Of a stretch of DNA of 13,685 bases, positions 1-13,685 are shown piece by piece. The position numbers and the translations under genes are program-made. The DNA is taken from NCBI GenBank assembly GCA_913009765.1, contig CAJVYT010000070.1, positions 1 through 13,685 on the forward strand, in the 5' to 3' direction. This stretch comes from an uncultured candidate division Zixibacteria bacterium (GTDB lineage: Bacteria > Zixibacteria > MSB-5A5 > GN15 > FEB-12). Position 1 is the first letter of the stretch; each line of letters opens with the position of its first letter. Under the pieces are notes generated by a model, which saw only the letters and a program-made list of their open reading frames with translations, had not been told where the DNA came from and did not search any database.

Positions 1-95
1 TTTTTTTTATTTGTGTGTTTTTTTTTTTTCAAGCAGAAGACGGCATACGAGATATATCAGTGTGACTGGAGTTCAGACGTGTGCTCTTCCGATCT
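1..95. other. Illumina TruSeq i7 adapter and poly-T read-through (not genomic)
   Basis: Positions 30-53 match the Illumina P7 flow-cell sequence, 54-61 is an index (ATATCAGT on this strand), and 62-95 is the read-2 primer site ending in GCTCTTCCGATCT. Positions 1-29 are low-complexity poly-T of the kind produced when reads run past the end of the fragment. Genomic DNA begins at about 96. Translation through this segment gives recurrent adapter peptides: RSEEHTSELQSH on the minus strand and a stretch ending SSDVCSSDL on the plus strand. Any gene call crossing position 95 must be trimmed. Confidence 0.98.
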
Positions 96-3000
96 TAGTG
101 CAGTATACTCAACATCAGCATTTGGAACTTCTTTTCCAAAAGGACTTGGAATATATGCAGTCTGTTTTAAAGTTGTTGATTTAACAGAAGGTGTTGGGGA
201 TACCGGATCTTCCCAATAACATCTTGTAGCATCAATTGTTTCAGGAAGTGTATTATTGACAGCCGAGGATGTATTACCAATAAATGCACTTTCGTGAATA
301 TCAATACTCGATGTATTTGTAGTATTCCCTGATAAATCAGCCGTCCAAATACCATCGTAAAGAGAATTTGTAATTGTACAACCGGTAATCGTGGCTGTCA
401 AACTACCATTATTCCAACCGGTATAGTAACTACCCCCCCAAGGATCTACACCCGTACCAAATAGATCAATTCCATCTCCTCCGTTGTTTAGAATATCACA
501 ATCTGTTATAGTAATATTTGCATTAGAATTGTCTCGGCTTAACTGAACTCCTAAAGTCCATTCATTATCATGAAGATTAAGATTTGTAAAACTTAGATTT
601 ACCGAAGAAGGATTAACATATCCCCAGCCCCAGTCACTGAAATTGACTCCACTCTCACAGTTGTAAACTTCATCATCGACCATTGCAACATCACCGGATT
701 CAAACAACAGAATTCCTGTTGATGCCCAGTCAGTACCTGTATAGGCAGTTCCTTCAACATAGTTTCCTAATGTTGTACCGCTCGCTCCATAGCTTAGTTG
801 GATACAGTTACCGGCTATTGTACTTGAAGCTACACCGGTTACACTATTATTATCAACAGTGAAAGTACAACCCGGACCCATTAAAACAATACCACCCTTT
901 TGGAAAGTCGGGATATTATTATTAGAAATATTAATACTAAATGTATCTCCAAGAGCATGTGTTCCAACAAACGAAACTACAGATTGTACTCCGGGACCAG
1001 CCGGATATGTAATGTTATCAATAGTACAATTAGTGAATGAACCGCTAGTGCTAAAGTAATGTACACCATAGAAATTTTCCGGACCCGTATCTCTACCATC
1101 AATAGTAAAACCATCAATATTAACAGTCCCTGCATCATTGACACCAATAACAGCATCAATTGTTTTAACAGAACCGTTCCATTGCGTTACGTTATATGTT
1201 GACCTGTCTACAGCATCAGGAGCTTCTATTAAACAAACTGATGAACCTGCACCTAACAAATCAATATTTTTATCAATATAGAGCTGCTCCCGATAAGTAC
1301 CTGCCCCAACATTAAGAACTTCCCCGGAGCTGGCAGCATCGATAGCCGGTTGAATGAACAACCCGTCAACAATCAAAAAGCCTCCACCGGCAATTAAAGT
1401 AACGTATGAGCCAACAGCTGTGCTGTCCAAAGCAATCGCAAAGGCAACGGCTTCAGCTTGAGTATCTTGATAGAAATAAAATCCGGCTGCATCAGGACGG
1501 AAAGCAAGATTACGAACCATATATTCATAACCGTTCACTGTGATATTGGTATTAGTAAGACCAAACTCATCCTGACTGAAAAGATTTCCTTCACCTAAAC
1601 TTAAAGTATTGCCATCTATATTAACATTATCTGAACCTCGATTGAGATAAGAAGGTCCCGAAGCATAGATTGCCATACTACCCCAAGCATTACCGGACGT
1701 TGTAATATTATCAATTGTTACACCTATACAACCGGTAACCTGTAAACCATTTCCACCCCACGCATCTTGAGAAGTTAAATACGAGAGAAGAACATTATTA
1801 AAACCATGAATATCAAATCCTGTCCTGCGATGGGCATTTGAAATAGTAATATTCTGTAAGGTTAAGTTTGTAAATCCGTTTGGCGGATTTGATGTTCCAC
1901 TGGCATGTATCGGATAATTTTCATTAGCGGCATTTGTTGCTAAAGTAAAATTTTCCATTAAAACATCGCCCGAAGTAACTAATATACCATACCCCCCTGC
2001 GGCAGGAATATTAATAATCACTCCGGTTTCAGATTCACCTGTTAATGTAAGTGGTTTATTTATTGTCAATGTTTCCGTATACGTTCCATTGGCAATAGTC
2101 ACCGTACTTCCATTTACAGCATCAATGGCTGCTTGGATAGTTGCAAAAGCATTAAAACCCCAGACATAACCGGTACCATTGGCAGCATTATAGACATCAA
2201 CATCTGCCTGCGATGTAAAATCATCATCAACCATAACATCAGAATTATCATTTGATGTAAATGCGAGCCCTGCTGTACATTCACCACCAATTTCAGGATA
2301 GTGGTTACCTGAGCTGTAAACCCATCCGCCGGTGGCATCCTGAGTTGCCCCCAACCAATATCCCATTTTATTTATATCATTTTGATACGTAACTTGATCT
2401 AGATTGCCAAGTGTCATCATTGTATATCCGGTTGACTGCCAATCTTCGTCATCAGTATTAGCACCATAACTTCCACTAATGCCTCCACCGGAATATTGAC
2501 TCGCCAAAAGCCTTGCAACCAAATCAGGGATTTCTGCAGTATGGCTACCCGATGCATCAAAGGCATCAATCAATCCTGTGATGCCAAGCGTATACCACCA
2601 AAAGTTTCTATCTGCCCAAGTAGAATCAAAACCGGCATCAGCGACAATATCAAATAAACCGGGATTATTGTTGTATGAATCTTGCCAAATAACTTCAGCA
2701 ATATCATCAGCATCAGTATCATAAGTTCCACCATAAACATCAAATAACATTTGAGCCACGACAGCATAAATTCCAAGATCCCAACCAATTATTCCGTTAG
2801 GATAATTTTGTGTCACTCCTCGAACATCTCTGAGATATTCAGCAAAAGATGTTGCAGTTCCGCCATTACTTGATATTCGTAAGTCATATTTTGCTTTAGC
2901 GGCAACAGAATAGACTGTTGTTGGTGCTACTTGAGCCGAGTAAAGATCATTAAATAACAATAAAAACTTCATATCAGCACCAGATCTGTTTATTGATGGT

Positions 3001-3467
3001 CCTGTTGAAACTATTTGATCAGCAGCATCTTGTAACACTGTAAACAACGCAGGATCTCCTGTGCTAAGATATGTGTAATACACACCCATTACAGTAGCTC
3101 CATAAATATTTGTAGGACTTGCCCCTGTTGAATGACTAAAAGTAGCCGATGACCAATCCCAACCACCATCATCAGGATCATCTGGAACATCAGGGTTACC
3201 ATTACCGGCGTTATCTTCTGTAATATCTGCTTGCATTTTACGCAGATATTCAGCACCTGCTAATTGAGCAGCATCTAAATTTACCGGATCCCCCGGGGCT
3301 AAAGAGAAATTCTTTGTGTTAATTTTACTTGTTATTGATTTTGTAAAGCTAGTCAAGTTGTTTATATTACCATCCCAATAATTAACAGGTGAAGCGTTTA
3401 TTAAAACTGCTCCCGTTAGAAAAAACACAAATAATAAAGTTATTACTAAGTATTTTTCTACCTTCAT
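96..3467 (-). CDS. Large exported protein with alpha/alpha-toroid and two beta-helix regions (3' truncated)
   Basis: The genomic part encodes 1,124 residues from ATG 3467. The reading frame then enters adapter, so the last 12 apparent residues (RSEEHTSELQSH) are artefact and the true C-terminus is missing. Residues 1-25 form a signal peptide. About 60-405 has repeated Trp/Gly-rich helical-hairpin patterns (WWYTLGITGLIDAF, YWLGATQDATGGW), resembling the prenyltransferase/squalene-cyclase alpha/alpha-toroid fold. About 437-650 starts with FATIQAAIDAVN...GTYTETLTINKPLTLTGE, the classic opening of a pectin-lyase-like/NosD right-handed beta-helix. A second helix starts near 704 (IQPAIDAASSGEVLNVGAGTYRE) and runs to about 1085, with many N-rich coils. 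A GGGAG ribosome site lies 6 nt before the ATG. In T9SS bacteria such proteins usually end in a sorting domain, here probably lost with the edge. A carbohydrate-binding or surface role is only inferred; no catalytic residues are identified. It is separated from the metal genes by about 500 bp and need not be functionally related to them. Confidence 0.85.
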
Positions 3468-5132: not shown

Positions 5133-7580
5133 TTAAATCAATTTACTTTTCTTTAGCCGTAAAGCGTTTGAAATAACCGAAAGAGAACTAAAACTCATCG
5201 CTGCTGCTGCTATCATTGGGCTTAAGAGTAAACCAAAAAATGGGTATAGAACTCCTGCTGCAACCGGTACACCCAATGAATTATATATAAAGGCTAAAAA
5301 GAGATTCTGCTTAATATTTTTAATTGTTAAGCGGCTTAATTGGCGAGCCCGTAATATTCCTCTTATGTCGCCTTTGATGAGTGTAACACCGGCAGATTCC
5401 ATGGCAACATCGGTACCTGTTCCCATTGCAATTCCGACTTCTGCTTGAGCTAATGCCGGAGCATCGTTGATACCATCACCTGCCATAGCAACAAAATAAC
5501 CTTTGTCTTGAAAACGTTTTACTGCTTCGGCTTTTTGGTGCGGAAGCACTTCAGCAATCACTTCATCGATTTGTAATTGTTTTGCGACAACATCGGCAGT
5601 AGCTTTATTGTCTCCGGTAAGCATGACAACTTTAATATTGTCTTCATGAAGCAGTTTAATTGCCGCTTGAGATGTTTCTTTTATCGGGTCAGCGACACCA
5701 ATGATTCCGGCGGCTTGGTTATCAACTGCCACATACATAACTGTCTGTCCTTCTTTTCGCAAAGAATCAGCTTTTGCATGGAGCATATTAATATCAATGT
5801 TTAGGCTTTCAAAAAGTGACTTATTTCCCAAGGAGATTAATTTATTATCTACTCTACCGACTACTCCCTTGCCTGTTATAGATTCAAAATCTTCGGCTTT
5901 TGATAACTGCAGATTATTTGTCACAGCACCTTTGACAATAGCATCTGCCAAAGGATGTTCACTTCCCTTTTCAAGACTTGCCGCATATCTCAAAACATCA
6001 TCATTGTTCCAAGAATCTACCACCTGAACATTCATCAATGTCGGTTTACCGACTGTCAGTGTTCCGGTTTTATCAACAACCAGTAAATCAACTTTTCTCA
6101 AAGTTTCGATTGCCTCGGCATTTTTAAACAGGACACCAAGCGATGCTCCCCGTCCGGTCGCAACCATTATAGACATCGGTGTTGCCAGTCCTAAAGCACA
6201 CGGGCAAGCAATAATAAGAACCGCCACAGCATTTATAAGTGCATGAGCCAATTTTGGATCAGGTCCGACTGTAGCCCAGACAATAAAAGCAATAACCGCC
6301 GAGGCAATAACCGCCGGAACAAAATAACCGGCAACTTGGTCAGCCAATTTTTGGATAGGTGCTTTACTTCTCTGAGCATCAGCAACCATCTGTACTATTT
6401 GAGAGAGTAAAGTATCAGAACCTATTTTTTCAGCTCTTATAATCAAAGAGCCGGTACTATTTACTGTAGCACCGATAACTTTTTCACCTTCTGTTTTCTC
6501 AACAGGTATAGGTTCACCGGTAATCATAGACTCATCAACAGAACTGTTCCCCTCAACAACGACACCATCAATCGGTACTTTTTCTCCCGGACGCACGCGA
6601 AGTTTATCACCAATTTTTATTTGCTCTATAGGGACATCCTCTTCTGTACCGTCATTATTTATTCTTTTGGCAGTTTTAGGAGCCAGACCAAGCAGAGCTT
6701 TGATAGCCGCCCCTGTTTGGCTTCGAGCTTTGAGTTCAAGTACCTGTCCTAAAAGAACTAAAGTTACAATAACTGCTGCCGCTTCAAAATAGACAGCAAC
6801 TTTTCCGGCATCATCCCGGAAAGCATCAGGAAAAATATCAGGAAGCAATGCCGCTGTCAAACTATATATATATGCCACTCCCGTACCAAGCCCTATCAAA
6901 GTAAACATATTCAGGCTTTTATTAACAACAGACTGCCAGCCTCTTACAAAAAACGGCCAACCACCCCAAAGAACAACCGGCGTTGCCAGCAATAACTCTA
7001 TCCAAGTTAATACAGTTGGAGTCGTAACTGATTGAAGCCAGTTATGAATTCCGGGGACAAGGTCACCCATTGCAATAAACAATAATGGGATTGATAATAC
7101 TGTACTTACCCAAAACCTATTACTCATCATACGTAATTCGGTATTATCTTCTTCAACGGTAACAGTGCGTGATTCCAAAGCCATTCCGCAAAGAGGGCAG
7201 CTTCCCGGTGAATCCTGTATAATTTCCGGATGCATAGGACATGTATATTCTATTTTTTCAGATGCCAGAATTGGAGTTACAGATTCTAACGCCATTCCGC
7301 ATTTTGGACATTCTCCGGGTTTGTCCTGCATAATTTCCGGATGCATTGGACAGGTATATTTACCTGTTTTACTGCTGTCTGATTCTTTTTTTATCTCAGC
7401 ATGAGAAGAACTGCAGCAGACAGGCTGAGTATCAGGCGGCTTTACATATTTGTTCGGGTCGTTTTGGAATTTATCGTAACATGATTGACTGCAAAAATAA
7501 TAATTGACATCATCGTAAACTGTGGAAAACTTTGATGACTCGTCAATATTCATATTACAAACCGGATCTTTTAATGGCAT
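5133..7580 (-). CDS. copA: Copper-translocating P1B-type ATPase with YHS and two CPMHPEI metal-binding domains
   Basis: This complete 815-residue pump exports monovalent copper (or silver) from the cytoplasm using ATP. Residues 1-47 are a YHS domain (Cys8, Cys30, Cys34), followed by Cys55-Cys56. Two heavy-metal-binding repeats follow, CPMHPEI...CPKCGM at 77-96 and CPMHPEI...CPLCGM at 114-133. They replace the usual GMxCxxC HMA domains, which are absent. Core motifs are all present: TGEP 354-357, the membrane CPC at 459-461, phosphorylation site DKTGT 503-507, HP at 542-543 in the N-domain, TGDN 655-658 and GDGINDAP 701-708. The last two membrane helices carry YN (766-767) and MSxSS (795-799), the Cu+ (P1B-1) signature. 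The ATG at 7580 has AAGGAG (7587-7592) at 6-nt spacing. The gene lies 52 bp after the kinase-like gene, probably in the same transcript as the ECF sigma factor. Confidence 0.96.
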
Positions 7581-7632: not shown

Positions 7633-8748
7633 TTAAAATAATACCTTTTCATTCTTGCTAACACCGTGAACTAAACCGTCTTTTGTTTTCTTTCCATTTT
7701 TATCCCGAGGAACTCCATCTTTTAAATACCAAGGCAGTTTTAATTTTTTTGGAAAAACTAATATAAATTCATCTAAACAATTATCTTTCCAGCGAAACCT
7801 GCAATCTCCAAAATGGTTGTTCATAACATTGATAACTGAAATCATATCATAGTTATGATAATTATCACTATTGAGATCACTTAGTTTGCTGTAATAATAC
7901 TTATCCAGTATCAAATCCGATTTTGTACCGCCTATTAAAATATTTGAAGATGTCTCTTTACTATAAATTACAATATGGTCAACAAATTCATTATTTTCAA
8001 TCAACTTACCAAATAAGAGATGAAAGGATTCTACAAGTGCTTTTTTGTGAACAAATCCTTGTAGTTTCACATCAGAGATGTCTTTTTTAATATAAATATT
8101 TTTATGTTTTAATCCAAGCTCTGCTTCTGATAAAAAACTAAACAGGATTTCATTTATATTTTGTTTTTTTAATCGAAGTTTTTTTCTTTCAACAAGAGAA
8201 ATCAAATCATTTCGTACCGTTTCTATTGAATTTGTTTCTGTTTTAATTACATCTAAATATGTTGCAATCGCAGGATGTTGTTTTTCAAACGGTTCAAGTG
8301 CGATGAGCATTCCATGTATTGATTTTATAGGTGTTTTCAATGACCTGATAATTGAACGTGATAAATTTCCAAATAATGCCATTTTTTCATACGACAGCAA
8401 TAGTCGTTGGTCGTTTACTTTCTGTTCAAAAAGAAGCCCTGAGGTATAGCCTATTATGATAAAAAGAACAATTTCAATAATTTGATTTATTTGATATGCC
8501 GGATGCATCCCCCAACTTATAAAAATATGAGGTAAATATACCATTCCGCAAATAACAGAAATCATCAATCCACCATTTTTACCATATTTGTATGCCGCCC
8601 ATATAACCGGTATATAATACAAACGCTGAAAAATATTATGGGCTAATTCGTGATGTGGTGAAAGAGAATAATGACCTATTGAAATGAATAGTATGCTCAG
8701 TGCAATACCAAGAAAGTTATAATTTATGTGTTTTTTCTGTGTTTTCAT
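7633..8748 (-). CDS. Four-TM membrane protein with degenerate histidine-kinase-like cytoplasmic region
   Basis: The product has 371 residues. Four hydrophobic segments fall at roughly 11-28, 39-54, 60-78 and 86-107, including RLYYIPVIWAAYKYGKNGG, a pattern I associate with the membrane sensor part of some histidine kinases. From 121 the sequence follows a kinase dimerisation helix (EKMALFGNLSRSIIRSLKTPIKSIHG). The HExxxP phosphoacceptor motif reads RSLKTP, so Arg135 replaces His and only Pro140 is kept. Further on, a region like the HATPase domain is recognisable (SFHLLFGKLIENNEF; then MISVINVMNNHFGDCRFRW near where GLGLxIV...HGG normally falls). No DxGxG or GxGxG nucleotide-binding box is present. 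Signal autophosphorylation therefore looks impossible. The gene begins 17 nt after the ECF sigma gene, the usual position of an anti-sigma factor; that role is my inference. The tail 339-371 is charged and of unknown function. Confidence 0.75.
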   Translation of the reverse strand: MKTQKKHINYNFLGIALSILFISIGHYSLSPHHELAHNIFQRLYYIPVIWAAYKYGKNGGLMISVICGMVYLPHIFISWGMHPAYQINQIIEIVLFIIIGYTSGLLFEQKVNDQRLLLSYEKMALFGNLSRSIIRSLKTPIKSIHGMLIALEPFEKQHPAIATYLDVIKTETNSIETVRNDLISLVERKKLRLKKQNINEILFSFLSEAELGLKHKNIYIKKDISDVKLQGFVHKKALVESFHLLFGKLIENNEFVDHIVIYSKETSSNILIGGTKSDLILDKYYYSKLSDLNSDNYHNYDMISVINVMNNHFGDCRFRWKDNCLDEFILVFPKKLKLPWYLKDGVPRDKNGKKTKDGLVHGVSKNEKVLF

Positions 8749-8765
8749 TTTATACCTTAAATGTA

Positions 8766-9293
8766 TTAGACCGCCTTCAACAATGCCCTGTTTCTATTTC
8801 TTTGCTCAATTTGATCTCTTAAAATCACTCGGCTTCTATAAACCCTAGACTTAACAGTACCAAGTTTTAAATCAGTCACTTTTTTTATTTCGGAATAAGA
8901 AAATTCCTTTGTAAAAAACAATAATGATATAATTTTATACTTCGTGTCTAAATTATATATTGAATCAATAATTTCAGCTTTAGACATATTATTTTTAATC
9001 ACCGTACTTTTACCAAAATTATATTCAGCAAAATTATCTTTTACTACTGACTTTTTTCTGCTTTGCGTACAAAATTGATTATATAATATTTTATATAGCC
9101 AAGCTCTGACATTTGTTCCTAAAGTAAATTTATCAATATTAGCATAAGCCTTATAAAATGTATCTTGTACCAAATCCTTGGCATCATCATTGTTTTTTGT
9201 CAATTTAAAGGCATATCTTATCAGGGCTTTGTAATATTGTGGAATTTTATTTTTCAAAGCTGTATATTCTGTATAATTATTCATAATAATCAT
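8766..9293 (-). CDS. ECF-family RNA polymerase sigma factor
   Basis: The product has 175 residues, a normal length for an extracytoplasmic-function sigma factor with only regions 2 and 4. Region 2 spans about 22-80, with DAKDLVQDTFYKAYANIDKF at 37-56 and RAWLYKILYNQF at 63-74. Region 4 spans about 108-160, with SYSEIKKVTDLKLGTVKSRV as the helix-turn-helix that reads the -35 element. It should direct polymerase to a small set of promoters, perhaps including those of this locus. The ATG at 9293 lies one base after the stop of the upstream T9SS-tagged gene (TAA G ATG), so translational coupling is likely. A second in-frame ATG at 9284 is an alternative start. The membrane kinase-like gene downstream is the candidate partner. 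No C-terminal sensor extension is present. Confidence 0.93.
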   Translation of the reverse strand: MIIMNNYTEYTALKNKIPQYYKALIRYAFKLTKNNDDAKDLVQDTFYKAYANIDKFTLGTNVRAWLYKILYNQFCTQSRKKSVVKDNFAEYNFGKSTVIKNNMSKAEIIDSIYNLDTKYKIISLLFFTKEFSYSEIKKVTDLKLGTVKSRVYRSRVILRDQIEQRNRNRALLKAV

Positions 9294-9294
9294 C

Positions 9295-9729
9295 TTATTT
9301 TAGTAAAACCATTTTTTTGACTGAATAAAAATTATCTGCTGCTACGACATAGAAATAAACTCCTGATGAAACAACATTTCTTGAAAAGTTTTTTCCGTCC
9401 CATTCTATCCTGTAACTTCCTGCTTCTTTAATCCCATTTTCTAATATTGTAATTAACTCTCCTAAAGAGTTATAAATCTTTAGTGTTGTGTTTGCCCGTT
9501 TAGGTATGGTATATTCTATTACTGTTATTGCGTTAAATGGGTTTGGATAGTTTTGTTTCACTTGGAAATATTTTGGTATGCTCGCAATATCATTAGATGA
9601 CAGAGTTACTTGTCCATTCAAAAAACCAGTTTCATTGGTTGTTCTGAAATGTGTCTTTTTATTAGCTTCTTTACTAAATCCAACCGTTGCCAAAAAAAGA
9701 GTTGCTGTTATAATAATTAAAAGTTTCAT
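9295..9729 (-). CDS. Small exported protein consisting mostly of a T9SS type A sorting domain
   Basis: The chosen start at 9729 gives 144 residues. It begins directly with a signal peptide (MKLLIIITATLFLATVGFS) and has GTGAGG (9736-9741) at 6-nt spacing. A longer reading from ATG 9798 would add 23 polar residues before the signal peptide and is less likely, though a GGGAG also precedes it. After about 35 linker residues the protein is a complete type A C-terminal sorting domain: YFQVKQNYPNPFNAITVIEY, TTLKIYNSLGELI, EWDGKNFSRNVVSSGVYFY, ending KKMVLLK. Such domains direct proteins through the type IX secretion system of Bacteroidota and relatives, where they are removed or anchored. Here there is essentially no cargo. 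It is the first gene of the unit containing the ECF sigma factor. It may be a remnant of a larger protein, or a small surface signal for the sigma pathway; both are inference. Confidence 0.85.
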   Translation of the reverse strand: MKLLIIITATLFLATVGFSKEANKKTHFRTTNETGFLNGQVTLSSNDIASIPKYFQVKQNYPNPFNAITVIEYTIPKRANTTLKIYNSLGELITILENGIKEAGSYRIEWDGKNFSRNVVSSGVYFYVVAADNFYSVKKMVLLK

Positions 9730-9741: not shown

Positions 9742-9871
9742 TTTCCTATGTTCACATTGATAACAAGCATATCTCATGCCATAAAGACTATTATTCATGT
9801 AACTCCCTAAGAATCAGTGTTTTATGGTGGCACAAAAAGGAGAAATTTCTAAATCAATTTAATATGAGTGT

Positions 9872-9911
9872 AGTATATTCTTCAACATTATAGAAAGTTG
9901 AAGAATATACT
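9872..9911. repeat. Perfect 15-bp inverted repeat upstream of the T9SS/ECF sigma unit
   Basis: AGTATATTCTTCAAC (9872-9886) and GTTGAAGAATATACT (9897-9911) are exact reverse complements separated by 10 nt. Neither side has a U-tract directly after the stem, so it is not a standard terminator, although one lies only 4 nt away at 9916-9942. On the minus strand the loop reads TTTCTATAAT, placing a -10-like TATAAT inside the dyad. It lies in the only non-coding stretch before the T9SS/ECF sigma/kinase-like/copA genes, so an operator or a leader RNA hairpin is plausible. No good -35 element is visible at the right distance. Confidence 0.75.
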
Positions 9912-9915
9912 CTAT

Positions 9916-9942
9916 AAAAAAGCGTCCTTTTACAAGGACGCT
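9916..9942 (-). terminator. Rho-independent terminator after the Met-rich lipoprotein gene
   Basis: On the minus strand a 9-bp perfect stem AGCGTCCTT/AAGGACGCT (9934-9942 with 9921-9929) closes a 4-nt loop and is followed at once by a run of six T (9921-9916). It lies about 40 nt after the lipoprotein stop codon at 9983. It separates the cusA/YHS/lipoprotein operon from the T9SS/ECF sigma/copA unit, which then needs its own promoter. Confidence 0.92.
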
Positions 9943-9982
9943 CAGGGTAAAAATATGAGGGAGGTATATAAAAAATTATTTA

Positions 9983-10519
9983 TTATTCTGTCATAAATTG
10001 ATACATATGATACCCGTCATCGCCATGGTTCATTTGCATCATTCCACCACTTTGATTCATCATGCCGCCTTCATACATAAACATCATATAGTCGGTGTTA
10101 GTCATCATAATAGAATCCGGTATAAATTCACAACTGTCATAATTGTTATTCCAGTTAAAAGTTCCCGGCATTTGAATTGAATCCATCCATATCATCATGT
10201 GATCATTCATCCCCATATTCATTTGTCCCATTCCTCCATAAAAATTAGAAGAGTCCATCCATTCATGCATTTCCGCACCACCTGAAAAGTGAAAATTATT
10301 CATAAATGAAGATGTATCCATTGGCTGGGAAAACTTTATTGACATTGATGTATTAGTTGAGATAGCAGTTGAACCTGCTGTTGGAAATACACTGACGATA
10401 TAAGATGAGGTATTATCAGTTAAAATTTCATTGTTATTATCACTGCACCCAACAAATAAAAGAGTAATTATACTTATCGATAAAATGAGAAATGTCAGAG
10501 TTGCTTTTGATTTGTTCAT
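9983..10519 (-). CDS. Methionine-rich lipoprotein with Big_5-like domain, putative copper binder
   Basis: The product has 178 residues. A signal peptide ends in the lipobox LFVGC with lipidated Cys25, followed by SDNNN. Residues about 40-75 (YIVSVFPTAGSTAISTNTSMSIKFSQPMDTSSF) match the start of a bacterial Ig-like Big_5 (SbsA-type) domain. Methionine is extraordinarily frequent: 26 in all, 25 of them between 59 and 176, mostly in clusters such as MGQMNMGMNDHMM (97-109), MMTNTDYMMFM (138-148) and GGMMNQSGGMMQM (152-163), with interspersed His. Met-rich motifs are established Cu(I)/Ag(I) ligands in CusF, CopC-like and CTR proteins. This suggests a periplasmic or outer-membrane copper-binding role next to the RND pump. 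A ribosome site (AGGAA) precedes the ATG and the gene starts 17 nt after the YHS/DUF2231 gene. I know no named family that covers the whole protein. Confidence 0.85.
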   Translation of the reverse strand: MNKSKATLTFLILSISIITLLFVGCSDNNNEILTDNTSSYIVSVFPTAGSTAISTNTSMSIKFSQPMDTSSFMNNFHFSGGAEMHEWMDSSNFYGGMGQMNMGMNDHMMIWMDSIQMPGTFNWNNNYDSCEFIPDSIMMTNTDYMMFMYEGGMMNQSGGMMQMNHGDDGYHMYQFMTE

Positions 10520-10536
10520 TTTATATTCCTATTATT

Positions 10537-11421
10537 TTAAAAATTAAAGTAATCAATACCATATACTAATGTTGCACCTAAGTGTCCGGTTATACCTACA
10601 AGCACAGCATTTAGCAGGAGAAATAAACGGTAGAGCATAGTTCCGCCGGTTTTGTTTTGAGATAGTTGTCTATAACCAAAGTATGCCGTTATAAAAGTCA
10701 CAACTGTAGTGCTAATCCCTAAAATTCTATGCCATTCAAAAGAAGAGACAAGAAAAGAGGGATACGAGGCATCTGACCCGGCTATTAATCCAAGAGTTGC
10801 CGCCGCAATAGCTGATAGTGCTGCAAAATATATCAAATATATTGAAAGAGTATCAAATATTTCAACTTTAAAAAACATAGATAAACCTGTAAAAAATAAT
10901 GCTGTTAATACTAACGCTATCGGGAAATGGATTATTAACGGATGAAACTTGCCTATAAAAGTAAGCAGCGAACTACTTTCTCCATGACCGGTTTCATGGT
11001 CATGAGCAGGCTCTTCATCATGTCCGCCCCCTTCATCATGTCCGCCCCCTTCATTATCTCCATGATTAGTTTCATTCGTTACTTGTTGTGATTCATTGAC
11101 TGATTGAGCAGCTTCCCCATGAGCATTCATACTATCATGGGGATGATCCTCGGTTACAGCTTGGGCTTTTTTATCTTTTTTTGATGGAAGATTTGCCAAG
11201 TACTTTTCAGGATTTGCTAAAAAATCTTTTTTACAACTGTTGCAGCAAAAGTATATAGTTTCACCTTTATACTCCAACGAAAATTTTTCTAATGCAAATT
11301 CATTGGTTGTCACCGGACAGTATTTATTAGTTACCTCAGCAATACTATTTGTTGGAATAAAACTCAGTATGCTCAAAGTAAGTAACATATACAACATTCT
11401 AATTCTAATTTTATTTTTCAT
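10537..11421 (-). CDS. YHS domain / His-rich linker / DUF2231 membrane protein
   Basis: From ATG 11421 the product has 294 residues; an in-frame GTG at 11424 is an alternative. Residues 1-28 are a signal peptide or anchor. About 32-76 is a YHS domain, a small metal-binding zinc-finger-like module, with Cys35 and YFCCNSC (Cys59, 60, 63). About 90-148 is an acidic, His-rich linker with nine His and repeated GGGHDE, likely to bind metal ions outside the cytoplasm. From about 153 comes a four-helix membrane domain of the DUF2231 type, with the characteristic FHPLIIHFPIAL (His160, His165), EWHRILG and GHLGATLVY. Co-occurrence with a Cus-type pump and a Met-rich lipoprotein supports a role in envelope copper handling. 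The start abuts the pump stop codon (TAA GTG ATG), and GAGGAG lies at 9 nt from the ATG, indicating translational coupling. The exact transport or redox role of DUF2231 is unknown. Confidence 0.88.
   Translation of the reverse strand: MKNKIRIRMLYMLLTLSILSFIPTNSIAEVTNKYCPVTTNEFALEKFSLEYKGETIYFCCNSCKKDFLANPEKYLANLPSKKDKKAQAVTEDHPHDSMNAHGEAAQSVNESQQVTNETNHGDNEGGGHDEGGGHDEEPAHDHETGHGESSSLLTFIGKFHPLIIHFPIALVLTALFFTGLSMFFKVEIFDTLSIYLIYFAALSAIAAATLGLIAGSDASYPSFLVSSFEWHRILGISTTVVTFITAYFGYRQLSQNKTGGTMLYRLFLLLNAVLVGITGHLGATLVYGIDYFNF
11014..11055. repeat. 18-bp tandem repeat encoding GGGHDE
   Basis: Two exact 18-bp units (11014-11031 and 11032-11049) plus the start of a third encode successive GGGHDE hexapeptides in the His-rich linker of the YHS/DUF2231 protein. 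This looks like slippage-driven expansion of a metal-binding spacer, and copy number may vary between strains. Confidence 0.85.
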
Positions 11422-11424
11422 CAC

Positions 11425-13515
11425 TTACGACTCCTCAATTATTTCGGTCGAAATCTTTTTTAGTTTTCTTTCTTCAATAGTACAATACAACACCGGTACC
11501 AAAAATACTGTGATTAAAACTACTGTCATGCCGCCAAAAGAAGGAAGTGCCATCGGTACCATAATATCAGAACCTCGTCCGGTAGAAGTTAAAACCGGAA
11601 TCAGAGCAAGAATTGTAGTAGCTGAAGTCATAAGAGCCGGTCTGATACGTCTTTGCCCTGCTTTAACAGTTGCGTTCCGCACTTCTATCACTGTCTGTGG
11701 TTTGACTTCTTCAAAAATTTGATCCAGATAAGTAGACATAATCACACCATTGTCACTGGCAATACCAAAAAGTGCCAGGAAGCCAACCCATACAGCTACT
11801 GAAAGATTAAAATTCCTTATCTGAAATAGTTCTCTCATATCTATTCCGAATAATGAAAAATCCATAAACCAACCTTGACCGTAAAGCCAAAGCATTATAA
11901 AACCTCCTGCCCATGCGACAAAAATACCTGAAAAGACTAAGAGTGTCACAGGAACTTTTTTAAACTGGAAGTAGAGAATTAAAAAGATGAAGACTAATGC
12001 TAAAGGCAGCACAACTTGAAGTTTCTTTTCAGATCTAATTTGATTTTCATAATTACCCGCAAAGACATAACTCACTCCGGCAGGTATTTTCAGTTCGCCG
12101 CTCTCTATTTTCTTCTTTAAATAGTTCTGGGCATCTTCAACAACATCCACTTCGGCAAAACCGGGTTTTTTATCAAAAATAACATATCCAAGTAAGAAAG
12201 TATCTTCAGATTTGATAACCATAGGTCCTCTGACAAATTTTATTTCAGCCAATTCAATTAATGGAATCTGAGCACCATTCATTGCCGGAATAAGAATTTT
12301 TTCGATATCTTCAATTGTATTTCGTAATTCGCGTTGATACCTTACTCGTACAGGATAACGTTCTCGACCTTCAACAGTAGTAGTTATTTTTTTACCACCA
12401 ATAGCAACTTCAATAACATCCTGTACCTGTCTTATCTGAATACCGTATCTGGCTATTTTTTCTCTATCAATATCAATTTCTAAATACGGCTTCCCAACAA
12501 TTCTATCTGCTATAACTGCCGATGGTTCTATTGAAGGTACTTCTTTGAGAAGTTTTTCGATTTCATAGCCGACTTTTTCTATTGTTTCAAGGTCGGGACC
12601 CTTAACTTTTACACCCATTGGAGCTCTCATACCGGATTGAAGCATCACAATACGAGCAGCAATAGGTTGTAGTTTAGGAGCTGAGGTAGTACCCAATAAT
12701 TTGCCGGCTTTGACAATTTCTTTCCATATATCACTTGGTGAATTTATTTTATCCCGCCATTGGCGAAAAGGTCTGCCGTCATTATCAGGAATTAACTTAC
12801 CAAATTCATCGTGGATAAATTTATTCTTAGTATCATCATACTTAAACTTTATCTTTTTGCCGACTTTATCAACAATATATTCTGACTTATAATTTATTAT
12901 TGTTTCAAACATAGAAATTGGTGCAGGATCTAAGGGCGATTCCACTCTTCCAAGTTTTCCAACCGCCGATTCAATTTCCGGTATTGAGTTAAATGCTTTG
13001 TCCTGAGTTTGTAAAATAGACAAGGCTTCACCTATTGATGCATGAGGCATAGTGGTCGGCATATATAAATAAGAACCTTCATCCAAATCAGGCATAAATT
13101 CTTTACCAATCCCGGGGAAAGTATGACTTAATGATGAATATACAGCATTAGACTGCATCCATCCGGGGATAAATCCGAATATTCTATTAAAACCTAACCA
13201 CATAGACATACCGATTACAATAATTACAACCGGAATTGATAAGAAGAACGTTTTATTGTCAAGACACCATCGTAACATAGGATCATACACCTTAATAAGA
13301 AGCTGGAATAGAAATAAAACTGAACCTAACAAAACCACTACGAAAATATAATTAAGGATTTCTCCAGCCTGTACACCTAAAGGTAACCAATGGTCAGAAA
13401 GAAAAGCAGCTACAACCAATACAATTAGATAATTGAAGTATACCGGTATTTTTACACTTATCTTTGATGGAATACGGTTTTTAAACTGCAAGTACGCAGC
13501 CAAAACAATAAGGGC
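11425..13515 (-). CDS. cusA: Heavy-metal efflux RND permease, CusA type (5' truncated)
   Basis: The gene is cut by the contig end. 696 genomic residues remain of a family usually about 1,040 or longer. The apparent N-terminal MLFRS is translated adapter, not a start. The partial protein opens in membrane helices and continues with FMPDLDEGSYLYMPTTMPHASIGEAL, DPAPISMFETIINYK and RIVMLQSGMRAPMGVKV, the periplasmic pore domain signatures of the HME family. It also contains RYGIQIRQVQDVIEVAIGGK and TTVEGRERYPVRVRY, and ends in membrane helices with NLSVAVWVGFLALFGIASDNGV and RRIRPALMTSATTILALIPV. The Met in RIVMLQSG corresponds to one of the copper-binding Met of E. coli CusA; the equivalent of CusA Met623 appears to be Ile (RYGIQI). 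It uses proton motive force to expel Cu(I)/Ag(I) through a trimeric pump with CusB- and CusC-like partners, expected beyond the right edge. Copper specificity is supported by the neighbours rather than proven. Confidence 0.93.
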   Translation of the reverse strand, partial: ALIVLAAYLQFKNRIPSKISVKIPVYFNYLIVLVVAAFLSDHWLPLGVQAGEILNYIFVVVLLGSVLFLFQLLIKVYDPMLRWCLDNKTFFLSIPVVIIVIGMSMWLGFNRIFGFIPGWMQSNAVYSSLSHTFPGIGKEFMPDLDEGSYLYMPTTMPHASIGEALSILQTQDKAFNSIPEIESAVGKLGRVESPLDPAPISMFETIINYKSEYIVDKVGKKIKFKYDDTKNKFIHDEFGKLIPDNDGRPFRQWRDKINSPSDIWKEIVKAGKLLGTTSAPKLQPIAARIVMLQSGMRAPMGVKVKGPDLETIEKVGYEIEKLLKEVPSIEPSAVIADRIVGKPYLEIDIDREKIARYGIQIRQVQDVIEVAIGGKKITTTVEGRERYPVRVRYQRELRNTIEDIEKILIPAMNGAQIPLIELAEIKFVRGPMVIKSEDTFLLGYVIFDKKPGFAEVDVVEDAQNYLKKKIESGELKIPAGVSYVFAGNYENQIRSEKKLQVVLPLALVFIFLILYFQFKKVPVTLLVFSGIFVAWAGGFIMLWLYGQGWFMDFSLFGIDMRELFQIRNFNLSVAVWVGFLALFGIASDNGVIMSTYLDQIFEEVKPQTVIEVRNATVKAGQRRIRPALMTSATTILALIPVLTSTGRGSDIMVPMALPSFGGMTVVLITVFLVPVLYCTIEERKLKKISTEIIEES
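11431..11436 (-). promoter_or_regulatory. Strong ribosome binding site inside the 3' end of cusA
   Basis: GAGGAG on the minus strand lies within the last codons of cusA, 9 nt before ATG 11421 and 6 nt before GTG 11424 of the YHS/DUF2231 gene. It indicates coupled translation of the two genes. Spacing is acceptable for both starts; ATG is preferred as the commoner codon. Confidence 0.65.
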
Positions 13516-13685
13516 AGATCGGAAGAGCACACGTCTGAACTCCAGTCACACTGATATATCTCGTATGCCGTCTTCTGCTTGAAAAAAAAAAACTAAAAAA
13601 ATAACAAAAAAAACAAAAAATAATACAAAAAAAAAAAAGAAAAAAAATCACCACACTAACTATCGAATGCGTACTGTCCTATCAC
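13516..13685. other. Illumina TruSeq adapter, index and poly-A read-through (not genomic)
   Basis: Genomic DNA ends at about 13515. Positions 13516-13549 begin AGATCGGAAGAGC and form the TruSeq read-2 adapter, 13550-13557 is index ACTGATAT, and 13558-13581 is the P7 complement. An error-rich poly-A tract to about 13646 and a meaningless tail to 13685 follow. The index is the exact complement of the one at the left end, so both ends come from the same library. Translation of the adapter creates the false N-terminus MLFRS on the cusA fragment. Confidence 0.98.

What the first reader, a model, noticed from the sequence alone, without database searches (positions are those of the whole stretch)
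7633..9293. ECF sigma factor paired with a membrane pseudo-histidine-kinase: candidate unconventional sigma/anti-sigma pair
Seen: an ECF sigma gene is followed after 17 nt by a four-TM protein whose cytoplasmic part resembles a histidine kinase, and then by a Cu+ ATPase. Known: ECF factors are usually co-transcribed with a membrane anti-sigma factor, and some anti-sigma factors (SpoIIAB/RsbW) use a HATPase fold. Inferred: the kinase-like protein may hold the sigma factor at the membrane and release it on an envelope copper or stress signal. No CueR, CsoR or CopRS-type regulator is seen in the window, so this pair is the only regulatory candidate.
Basis: partly seen in the sequence, partly recalled or inferred. 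Interest (0 to 1): 0.72.

Follow-up and report, generated by a model that had tools for sequence, protein, structure and literature searches.

The report
Dead sensor kinase beside copper sigma
In copper-export gene clusters of a little-known bacterial group, a membrane sensor that has lost its kinase chemistry is usually encoded right behind an alternative sigma factor, in an operon that carries a sigma-54 promoter-like site; it may work as an unusual non-enzymatic switch, but it also occurs without that sigma factor, so its partner is unproven.

Summary
The genes are real and correctly placed: an ECF sigma gene, 17 nt, then a 371-aa membrane protein ('PHK'), then a Cu P-type ATPase. PHK has a complete histidine-kinase DHp-CA fold, but in 53 of 53 aligned rows (52 distinct) the phosphoacceptor His is Arg or Lys and the G1 Asp is deleted: a conserved pseudokinase of copper cassettes, mostly in Zixibacteria-type genomes. 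The ECF gene sits directly upstream in 6 of 9 readable contexts and is absent in 3 (two lineages). The window itself carries a -24/-12 site and a 15-bp-arm palindrome ahead of the tail-ECF-PHK-copA operon. Best reading: a sigma-54 two-component system switches on a second-tier ECF/PHK/CopA operon, and PHK is a non-enzymatic membrane regulator, most likely of the ECF (anti-sigma-like), alternatively of the real kinase. The ECF-PHK interaction is untested; one AlphaFold run on an artificial fusion was inconclusive.

The parts
8766..9284 (-). ECF sigma factor (ORF opens at 9293; likely start 9284)
7633..8748 (-). PHK: membrane pseudo-histidine-kinase, 371 aa
8395..8748 (-). PHK membrane sensor part (residues 1-118), weak MASE1 trace here, DUF4118/MASE1 traces in relatives; H26, Y27 and H37 invariant in the 34-row family alignment
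8179..8394 (-). PHK DHp helical hairpin (residues 119-190); R135 (codon 8344-8346) in place of the phosphoacceptor His
7729..8178 (-). PHK CA-like domain (residues 191-340) with ATP-binding boxes lost
9295..9729 (-). small secreted protein with type IX sorting domain (ORF opens at 9798; the start ATG at 9729 lies behind the sigma-54 site)
9766..9781 (-). -24/-12 sigma-54 promoter-like site TGGCATGAGATATGCT
9872..9911 (.). palindrome, two perfect 15-bp arms with a 10-nt loop: candidate activator (UAS) site
9920..9943 (-). intrinsic terminator behind the Big_5 gene, separating the two operons
5133..7580 (-). Cu+-type P1B ATPase (CopA) with YHS and HMBD domains
9983..10519 (-). Met-rich Big_5-domain protein (26 Met in 178 aa), recurrent gene of PHK cassettes
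10537..11424 (-). YHS/DUF2231 membrane protein of the upstream operon
11425..13515 (-). C-terminal part of CusA-type RND pump (cut by adapter sequence)

Best explanation
The locus is the second operon of a two-operon copper-efflux cassette. Copper (inferred signal) activates a DUF4118-type histidine kinase and its NtrC-type response regulator, encoded at the far end of the cassette (shown in relatives, inferred for the window organism). The regulator binds the inverted repeat and drives the -24/-12 promoter of the tail-ECF-PHK-copA operon (sites shown, binding inferred). PHK is a catalytically dead relative of that kinase, keeping membrane sensor, dimerisation hairpin and empty CA domain. It most likely acts without phosphoryl chemistry as a membrane regulator of the ECF encoded just before it, binding it through DHp/CA and releasing or holding it with the copper state of the envelope (inferred, untested). 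The ECF would then fire a still unknown second-tier regulon.
For: Dead kinase: in 53 of 53 aligned PHK rows (52 distinct; His to Arg 52, Lys 1; G1 Asp deleted in 53; first N-box Asn absent in 53) against these motifs intact in 17 of 17 kinases, yet fold kept. ECF directly upstream in 6 of 9 readable contexts, with overlapping or touching reading frames in L004-L006 (26, 32 and 1 nt; starts not proven). Cassette-type ECF (over 220 bits) seen in 5 of 132 genomes of the phylum, all with PHK. The ECF's closest paralogues carry a ZAS-type anti-sigma in the slot PHK fills (7 of 7 inspected). Sigma-54 layer: activator with Sigma54_activat 7e-71, GAFTGA in 4 of 5, RpoN in 10 of 10 genomes. Best -24/-12 score 16-19 of 19 before the tail gene in 8 of 8 regions (window, L001-L005, L008, L028), each reached by at most 12 of 300 shuffles, and before cusC in 6 of 8 at that level.
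Against: PHK occurs without the ECF in L007 (only a Big_5 gene kept) and in L008 and L028 (cupredoxin-like neighbour). In the tree the L008 lineage lies near the base of PHK, so the ECF link may be secondary. No anti-sigma domain by Pfam. Fusion model: pTM 0.56 and poor sigma-4, no confident interface. Of 127 positions invariant in eight PHKs taken as ECF-linked, only 8 change in all three ECF-less ones, so little ties PHK sequence to the ECF. An ECF transcribed from a sigma-54 promoter needs no anti-sigma (HrpL; passages of PMC8999054). The L007 PHK has no sigma-54-like site; a looser GA.TGA search found none in the fifth regulator. The exact promoter pattern also occurs away from the tail gene in L002, L008, L009 and L013. 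Copper sensing by PHK is not shown.
Confidence: 0.43

Rival explanations
1. PHK is a feedback pseudokinase of the two-component system: it pairs with the genuine DUF4118 kinase (or sequesters its signal) and tunes the sigma-54 activator, while the ECF is controlled only at transcription, like HrpL or SigE.
For: PHK shares architecture with the cassette's kinase and keeps the DHp dimerisation hairpin. A genuine kinase of this type is in 9 of 10 PHK genomes. RetS-GacS and DivL structures are among the fold matches. PHK sits in an operon carrying the presumed activator's site, as a feedback element would. ECF-less PHKs in L008 and L028 fit easily.
Against: No such kinase found in G007, which keeps PHK. 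50 of the 58 kinase-bearing genomes of the phylum had no PHK match. The frequent slot behind the ECF would be accidental. PHK and the kinases form separate, deeply split groups.
Confidence: 0.27
2. PHK is a copper-handling or sensing membrane protein working with the Met-rich Big_5 protein (relay or chaperone), and neither the ECF nor the kinase is its direct partner.
For: Big_5 is the most constant gene near PHK: present in all 8 contexts whose upstream side is long enough (L001-L005, L007, L008, L028), and in L007 Big_5 and PHK stand without the rest of the cassette. Invariant His in the membrane part.
Against: The H26 and H37 columns are also His in the genuine kinases shown, so they are not special to PHK. 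A whole conserved DHp-CA fold is hard to explain for simple copper binding. Big_5 is not always adjacent (tail and ECF lie between in L001-L005).
Confidence: 0.17
3. Mere passenger: the ECF/PHK adjacency is a by-product of cassette shuffling with no functional link.
For: The kinase-CusCBA core occurs without the tail-ECF-PHK-copA operon (L085, L086, L088, L092).
Against: Gene order tail-ECF-PHK-copA is kept while ECF identity to the window falls to 33-35% and PHK identity to 48-56% (L004-L006); overlapping reading frames; PHK sequence strongly constrained (30 invariant columns in 34 rows).
Confidence: 0.1

Closest known systems
ZraS/HydH- and CusS-type sensor histidine kinases (DHp-CA core)
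   Same: Same DHp-CA fold; ZraS is the best Foldseek match, CusS also matches. The closest intact relative in sequence is a HydH-named kinase with a DUF4118 domain (P0057).
   Different: No phosphoacceptor His, degenerate N box, G1 Asp deleted.
Pseudokinase-type regulators RetS and DivL
   Same: Kinase fold reused for protein-protein control (structures 7n0e and 4q20 appear; their biology is recalled).
   Different: Their known targets are kinases (recalled); PHK's target is unknown and an ECF gene is its frequent neighbour.
Membrane anti-sigma factors of ECFs (RseA type) and soluble ZAS anti-sigmas
   Same: Gene directly behind the ECF, reading frames overlapping in some loci, membrane-bound; paralogous ECFs carry a ZAS-type protein there.
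   Different: No ASD or ZAS domain; kinase-derived fold.
ECFs transcribed by another layer: HrpL (sigma-54) and SigE/CseBC
   Same: ECF gene behind a sigma-54-type promoter; a two-component system in the cluster of relatives. Precedents read in passages of PMC8999054.
   Different: In the passages read those are listed among ECFs without an anti-sigma factor; no pseudokinase is named.
PorA-PorXY-SigP of Porphyromonas gingivalis
   Same: A type IX sorting-domain protein, a two-component system and an ECF in one pathway (abstract and passages of PMC7712824).
   Different: Here the regulator is NtrC-type rather than PglZ-type, the ECF's neighbour is a dead kinase, and the setting is copper efflux.
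CorE (copper-dependent ECF of Myxococcus)
   Same: ECF in copper homeostasis (passages of PMC8999054).
   Different: CorE senses copper itself by a C-terminal Cys-rich domain; this ECF shows no such extension.
BtrS with BtrU/BtrV/BtrW of Bordetella
   Same: An ECF alongside partner-switching proteins (passages of PMC12805831); BtrW being RsbW-like is recalled.
   Different: There a separate anti-sigma BtrA is named; PHK is membrane-bound with a lost ATP site.

Membership tests
ECF sigma factor | sigma-2 and sigma-4 regions, no sigma-3 | tested here: met
   Sigma70_r2 51.4 bits and TIGR02937 55.9 bits over cut-off; region 4 at 23.4 vs 25.7; most close relatives carry PF08281
Active histidine kinase | phosphoacceptor His and ATP-binding N/G1 boxes | tested here: not met
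   0 of 53 PHK rows with His; first N-box Asn in 0 of 53 and second in 3 of 53; G1 Asp deleted in 53 of 53 although one G1 Gly column is kept in 53; kinases 17 of 17 intact
Histidine-kinase fold (DHp-CA) | DHp hairpin followed by CA alpha/beta domain | tested here: met
   AF2 model and PDB matches
Class I ECF anti-sigma factor | ASD or ZAS anti-sigma domain | tested here: not met
   Pfam scan at E up to 1 gives only MASE1 and HisKA traces; a structural ASD comparison was not made
Class I ECF anti-sigma factor | gene directly downstream of its sigma gene | tested here: met
   6 of 9 readable contexts
Class I ECF anti-sigma factor | binds and inhibits the sigma factor | tested here: inconclusive
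   single-chain AF2 of an artificial fusion, pTM 0.56
RsbW/SpoIIAB anti-sigma kinases | ATP-binding GHKL domain that acts as protein kinase (recalled) | tested here: not met
   ATP-binding boxes lost
Sigma-54-controlled operon | -24/-12 promoter with upstream activator site | tested here: met
   sites (sequence matches only, no binding shown)
Sigma-54-controlled operon | enhancer-binding regulator in the same organism | tested here: inconclusive
   present in relatives; outside the sequence held for the window organism
PorXY-SigP type pathway | PglZ-domain response regulator that binds the ECF | tested here: not met
   regulators of relatives are receiver-AAA-Fis HTH (2 scanned)

The most novel reading that the evidence does not exclude
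A sensor kinase that lost its chemistry has been turned into a membrane anti-sigma (or sigma-holding) protein: a kinase-derived, ATP-free partner of an ECF sigma factor, wired behind a sigma-54 two-component system whose own kinase has the same architecture, so that related sensor folds feed two sigma layers of one copper circuit.
Probability: 0.3. Interest if true: 0.75.

Novelty: new variant of a known kind. Interest (0 to 1): 0.5.

Why it matters
A kinase-derived membrane partner of an ECF sigma factor did not turn up in the paper searches made here (which held 2, 1, 0 and 0 papers; passages of those three were read and are about other things; open-licence PubMed Central only). If PHK gates the ECF, it shows a route by which signalling can pass from two-component systems to sigma factors by recycling a dead kinase. 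Even if it acts on the genuine kinase, it is a conserved pseudokinase family with a clear physiological setting (copper efflux) and testable partners, in a phylum known largely from metagenomes (recalled).

Tried and rejected
Rejected: (1) PHK as an active kinase. (2) PHK as an RsbW-like ATP-dependent anti-sigma (ATP boxes lost). (3) 'Only regulatory candidate'. (4) Phage origin: a scan of viral contigs with the PHK alignment found no relative. (5) ECF activated by a C-terminal copper domain: no extension.

Led nowhere: AF2 of the ECF-PHK fusion, with only 6 ECF rows beside the fusion in the alignment and one chain; a first alignment for it misplaced the ECF rows and a third was unsatisfactory. 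The ECF-less versus ECF-linked residue comparison is too thin; its 8 'ECF-linked' rows include P0001 and P0005, linked to an ECF only by equal contig length, and P0021, whose contig length (9867) equals that of an ECF (P0187) but whose DNA was not read. The search of 395 genomes drawn from the phylum of G003 found PHK only in G003; that 7.2-Mb MAG is labelled Bacteroidetes and may be mixed. Matching contig lengths between the PHK and ECF protein lists gave extra likely pairs (35076, 8518, 9867) but no DNA; many PHKs on long contigs had no ECF in the listed top 120 of 1551, which may mean further ECF-less cases. Rows left out of counts: L009 (contig edge, upstream side missing) from ECF adjacency; L006 and L009 from the Big_5 count. 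Of the 53 PHK rows two are the same protein (P0033 and L007). L004 and L009 PHK reading frames are interrupted; they were described, not mended. Paper searches gave background only. Passages of PMC8103513 were not used.

Full report
What is there. On the minus strand the window reads: C-terminal part of a CusA-type RND pump, YHS/DUF2231 protein, Met-rich Big_5 protein, terminator (9920-9943), palindrome (9872-9911), sigma-54-like site (9766-9781), small secreted protein with a type IX sorting domain, ECF sigma factor, PHK (the 371-aa membrane protein), Cu P-type ATPase, a protein with a below-cut-off cytochrome c' match, DUF2147 protein, and a large beta-helix protein. Both ends are Illumina-type adapter (recognised by eye) plus filler, so the pump is cut and nothing beyond can be read.

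Where it occurs. A scan of one genome per species (84,980 species, per the tool) with the PHK alignment gave 9 loci; 5 of the 9 record titles say Candidatus Zixiibacteriota, the others Bacteroidetes (1), FCB group (1) and 'bacterium' (2). In the phylum of G002, 9 of 132 genomes carry PHK, one of them new (G066, locus L028); 395 genomes drawn from the phylum of G003 gave 1, G003 itself. Of the ten contexts, L009 starts at a contig edge. Of the remaining nine, six (L001-L006) have the ECF directly upstream and CopA directly downstream. L007 has only a Big_5 gene upstream and a gene that by eye looks like a Ser/Thr kinase downstream; L008 and L028 have the sorting-domain protein, an unmatched protein with several Cys and a cupredoxin-like protein upstream, with CopA about 8.5-11 kb away. 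The cassette-type ECF (over 220 bits) was listed in five genomes of the phylum, all with PHK; every one of the 132 genomes has at least one ECF match at the threshold used. Seven inspected loci of the closest paralogue group (of 25 fetched; in L058 the ECF frame itself was hidden by a longer ORF on the other strand) have a downstream protein with an HX3CX2C motif, the mark of a ZAS anti-sigma (motif recalled).

The rest of the circuit. In relatives the cassette begins with a 353-aa kinase and an NtrC-type regulator, divergent from cusC-YHS-cusB-cusA-YHS/DUF2231-Big_5; the regulator has receiver, sigma-54 interaction and Fis-type HTH domains, and the kinase has HisKA, HATPase_c and a DUF4118 trace. 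The kinase lies about 11-12 kb from PHK on the same contig in 5 of 10 genomes (G001, G002, G003, G008, G066), on other contigs in four, and was not found in G007. RpoN is present in 10 of 10. The -24/-12 match in the window is the only exact one there (0.06 expected); in 31 loci the exact pattern occurs in 14, mostly at the tail gene or repeats of the same place, but also elsewhere in L002, L008, L009 and L013. Scoring (maximum 19) gave 16-19 ahead of the tail gene in 8 of 8 regions, reached by 0-12 of 300 simple shuffles each; ahead of cusC 6 of 8 regions were reached by at most 3 of 300, while L013 (26 of 300) and L019 (22 of 300) were not clear; most cusC sites lack the -12 C; the two L007 regions were negative. 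The regions are related, so these are not independent tests. Inverted repeats with related arms are the best repeat in about 8 of the 16 regions, by eye (window, L003, L004, L005, L012, L013, L015, L016); L008 and L028 show none clear, and in L001 and L002 the best repeat was the terminator. The window's palindrome has 15-bp perfect arms; 0 of 400 first-order shuffles reached 12. The Cus core with kinase but without PHK was seen in L085, L086, L088 and L092 of eight regions fetched (in L088 the regulator frame was not picked); L087, L089, L090 and L091 were too short or arranged differently.

How it probably works. A sigma-54 two-component system turns on both operons; the second makes CopA plus an ECF and a dead kinase. 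Two uses of the dead kinase fit. As an ECF regulator it explains gene order, overlap and the missing anti-sigma. As a partner of the genuine kinase it explains the shared architecture and the ECF-less cases, with RetS-GacS as a structural precedent. I favour the first at 0.43 against 0.27, because the ECF's anti-sigma slot is filled by PHK and the cassette-type ECF was not seen without it; the ECF-less lineages keep this from being higher. An AlphaFold run on an artificial ECF-PHK fusion returned pTM 0.56 with a poorly modelled sigma-4, so it neither supports nor excludes binding.

Against known systems. The sigma-54-to-ECF step has a precedent in HrpL and a two-component-to-ECF step in SigE/CseBC (passages of PMC8999054). 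A type IX sorting-domain protein feeding a two-component/ECF pathway has a precedent in PorA-PorXY-SigP (abstract and passages of PMC7712824). A kinase-derived membrane partner of an ECF was not found in the open-licence literature searched. So the parts are known kinds; the ECF/dead-kinase pairing is a new variant whose function is untested.

Noticed in passing
window 30-95 and 13516-13685: Sequencing adapter and low-complexity filler at both ends of the contig; ORF ends at 57 and 13530 are artefacts.
   Followed up: yes
window 9983-10519: Met-rich Big_5-domain protein (26 Met of 178), the most constant gene near PHK; possible outer copper binder.
   Followed up: partly
window 9295-9729: Tiny secreted protein that is little more than a type IX sorting domain, kept ahead of the ECF in L001-L006; recalls PorA upstream of SigP.
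   Followed up: partly
L008 8911-9843 and L028 2651-3583: Two small proteins (Cys-containing, cupredoxin-like) stand where the ECF would be.
   Followed up: partly
window 57-3467: 1136-aa right-handed beta-helix protein; a relative lies at the other end of the cassette in L010 (2-3595).
   Followed up: no
L004 5337-6497 and L009 1-1087: PHK reading frame interrupted in these two assemblies (assembly error or decay).
   Followed up: no
L013 and L019 (one genome): Two kinase-regulator-Cus cassettes in one genome, PHK seen beside only one.
   Followed up: partly
L013 14253-14268: An exact sigma-54-type match also points towards the kinase gene, so the two-component genes may be self-controlled.
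   Followed up: no
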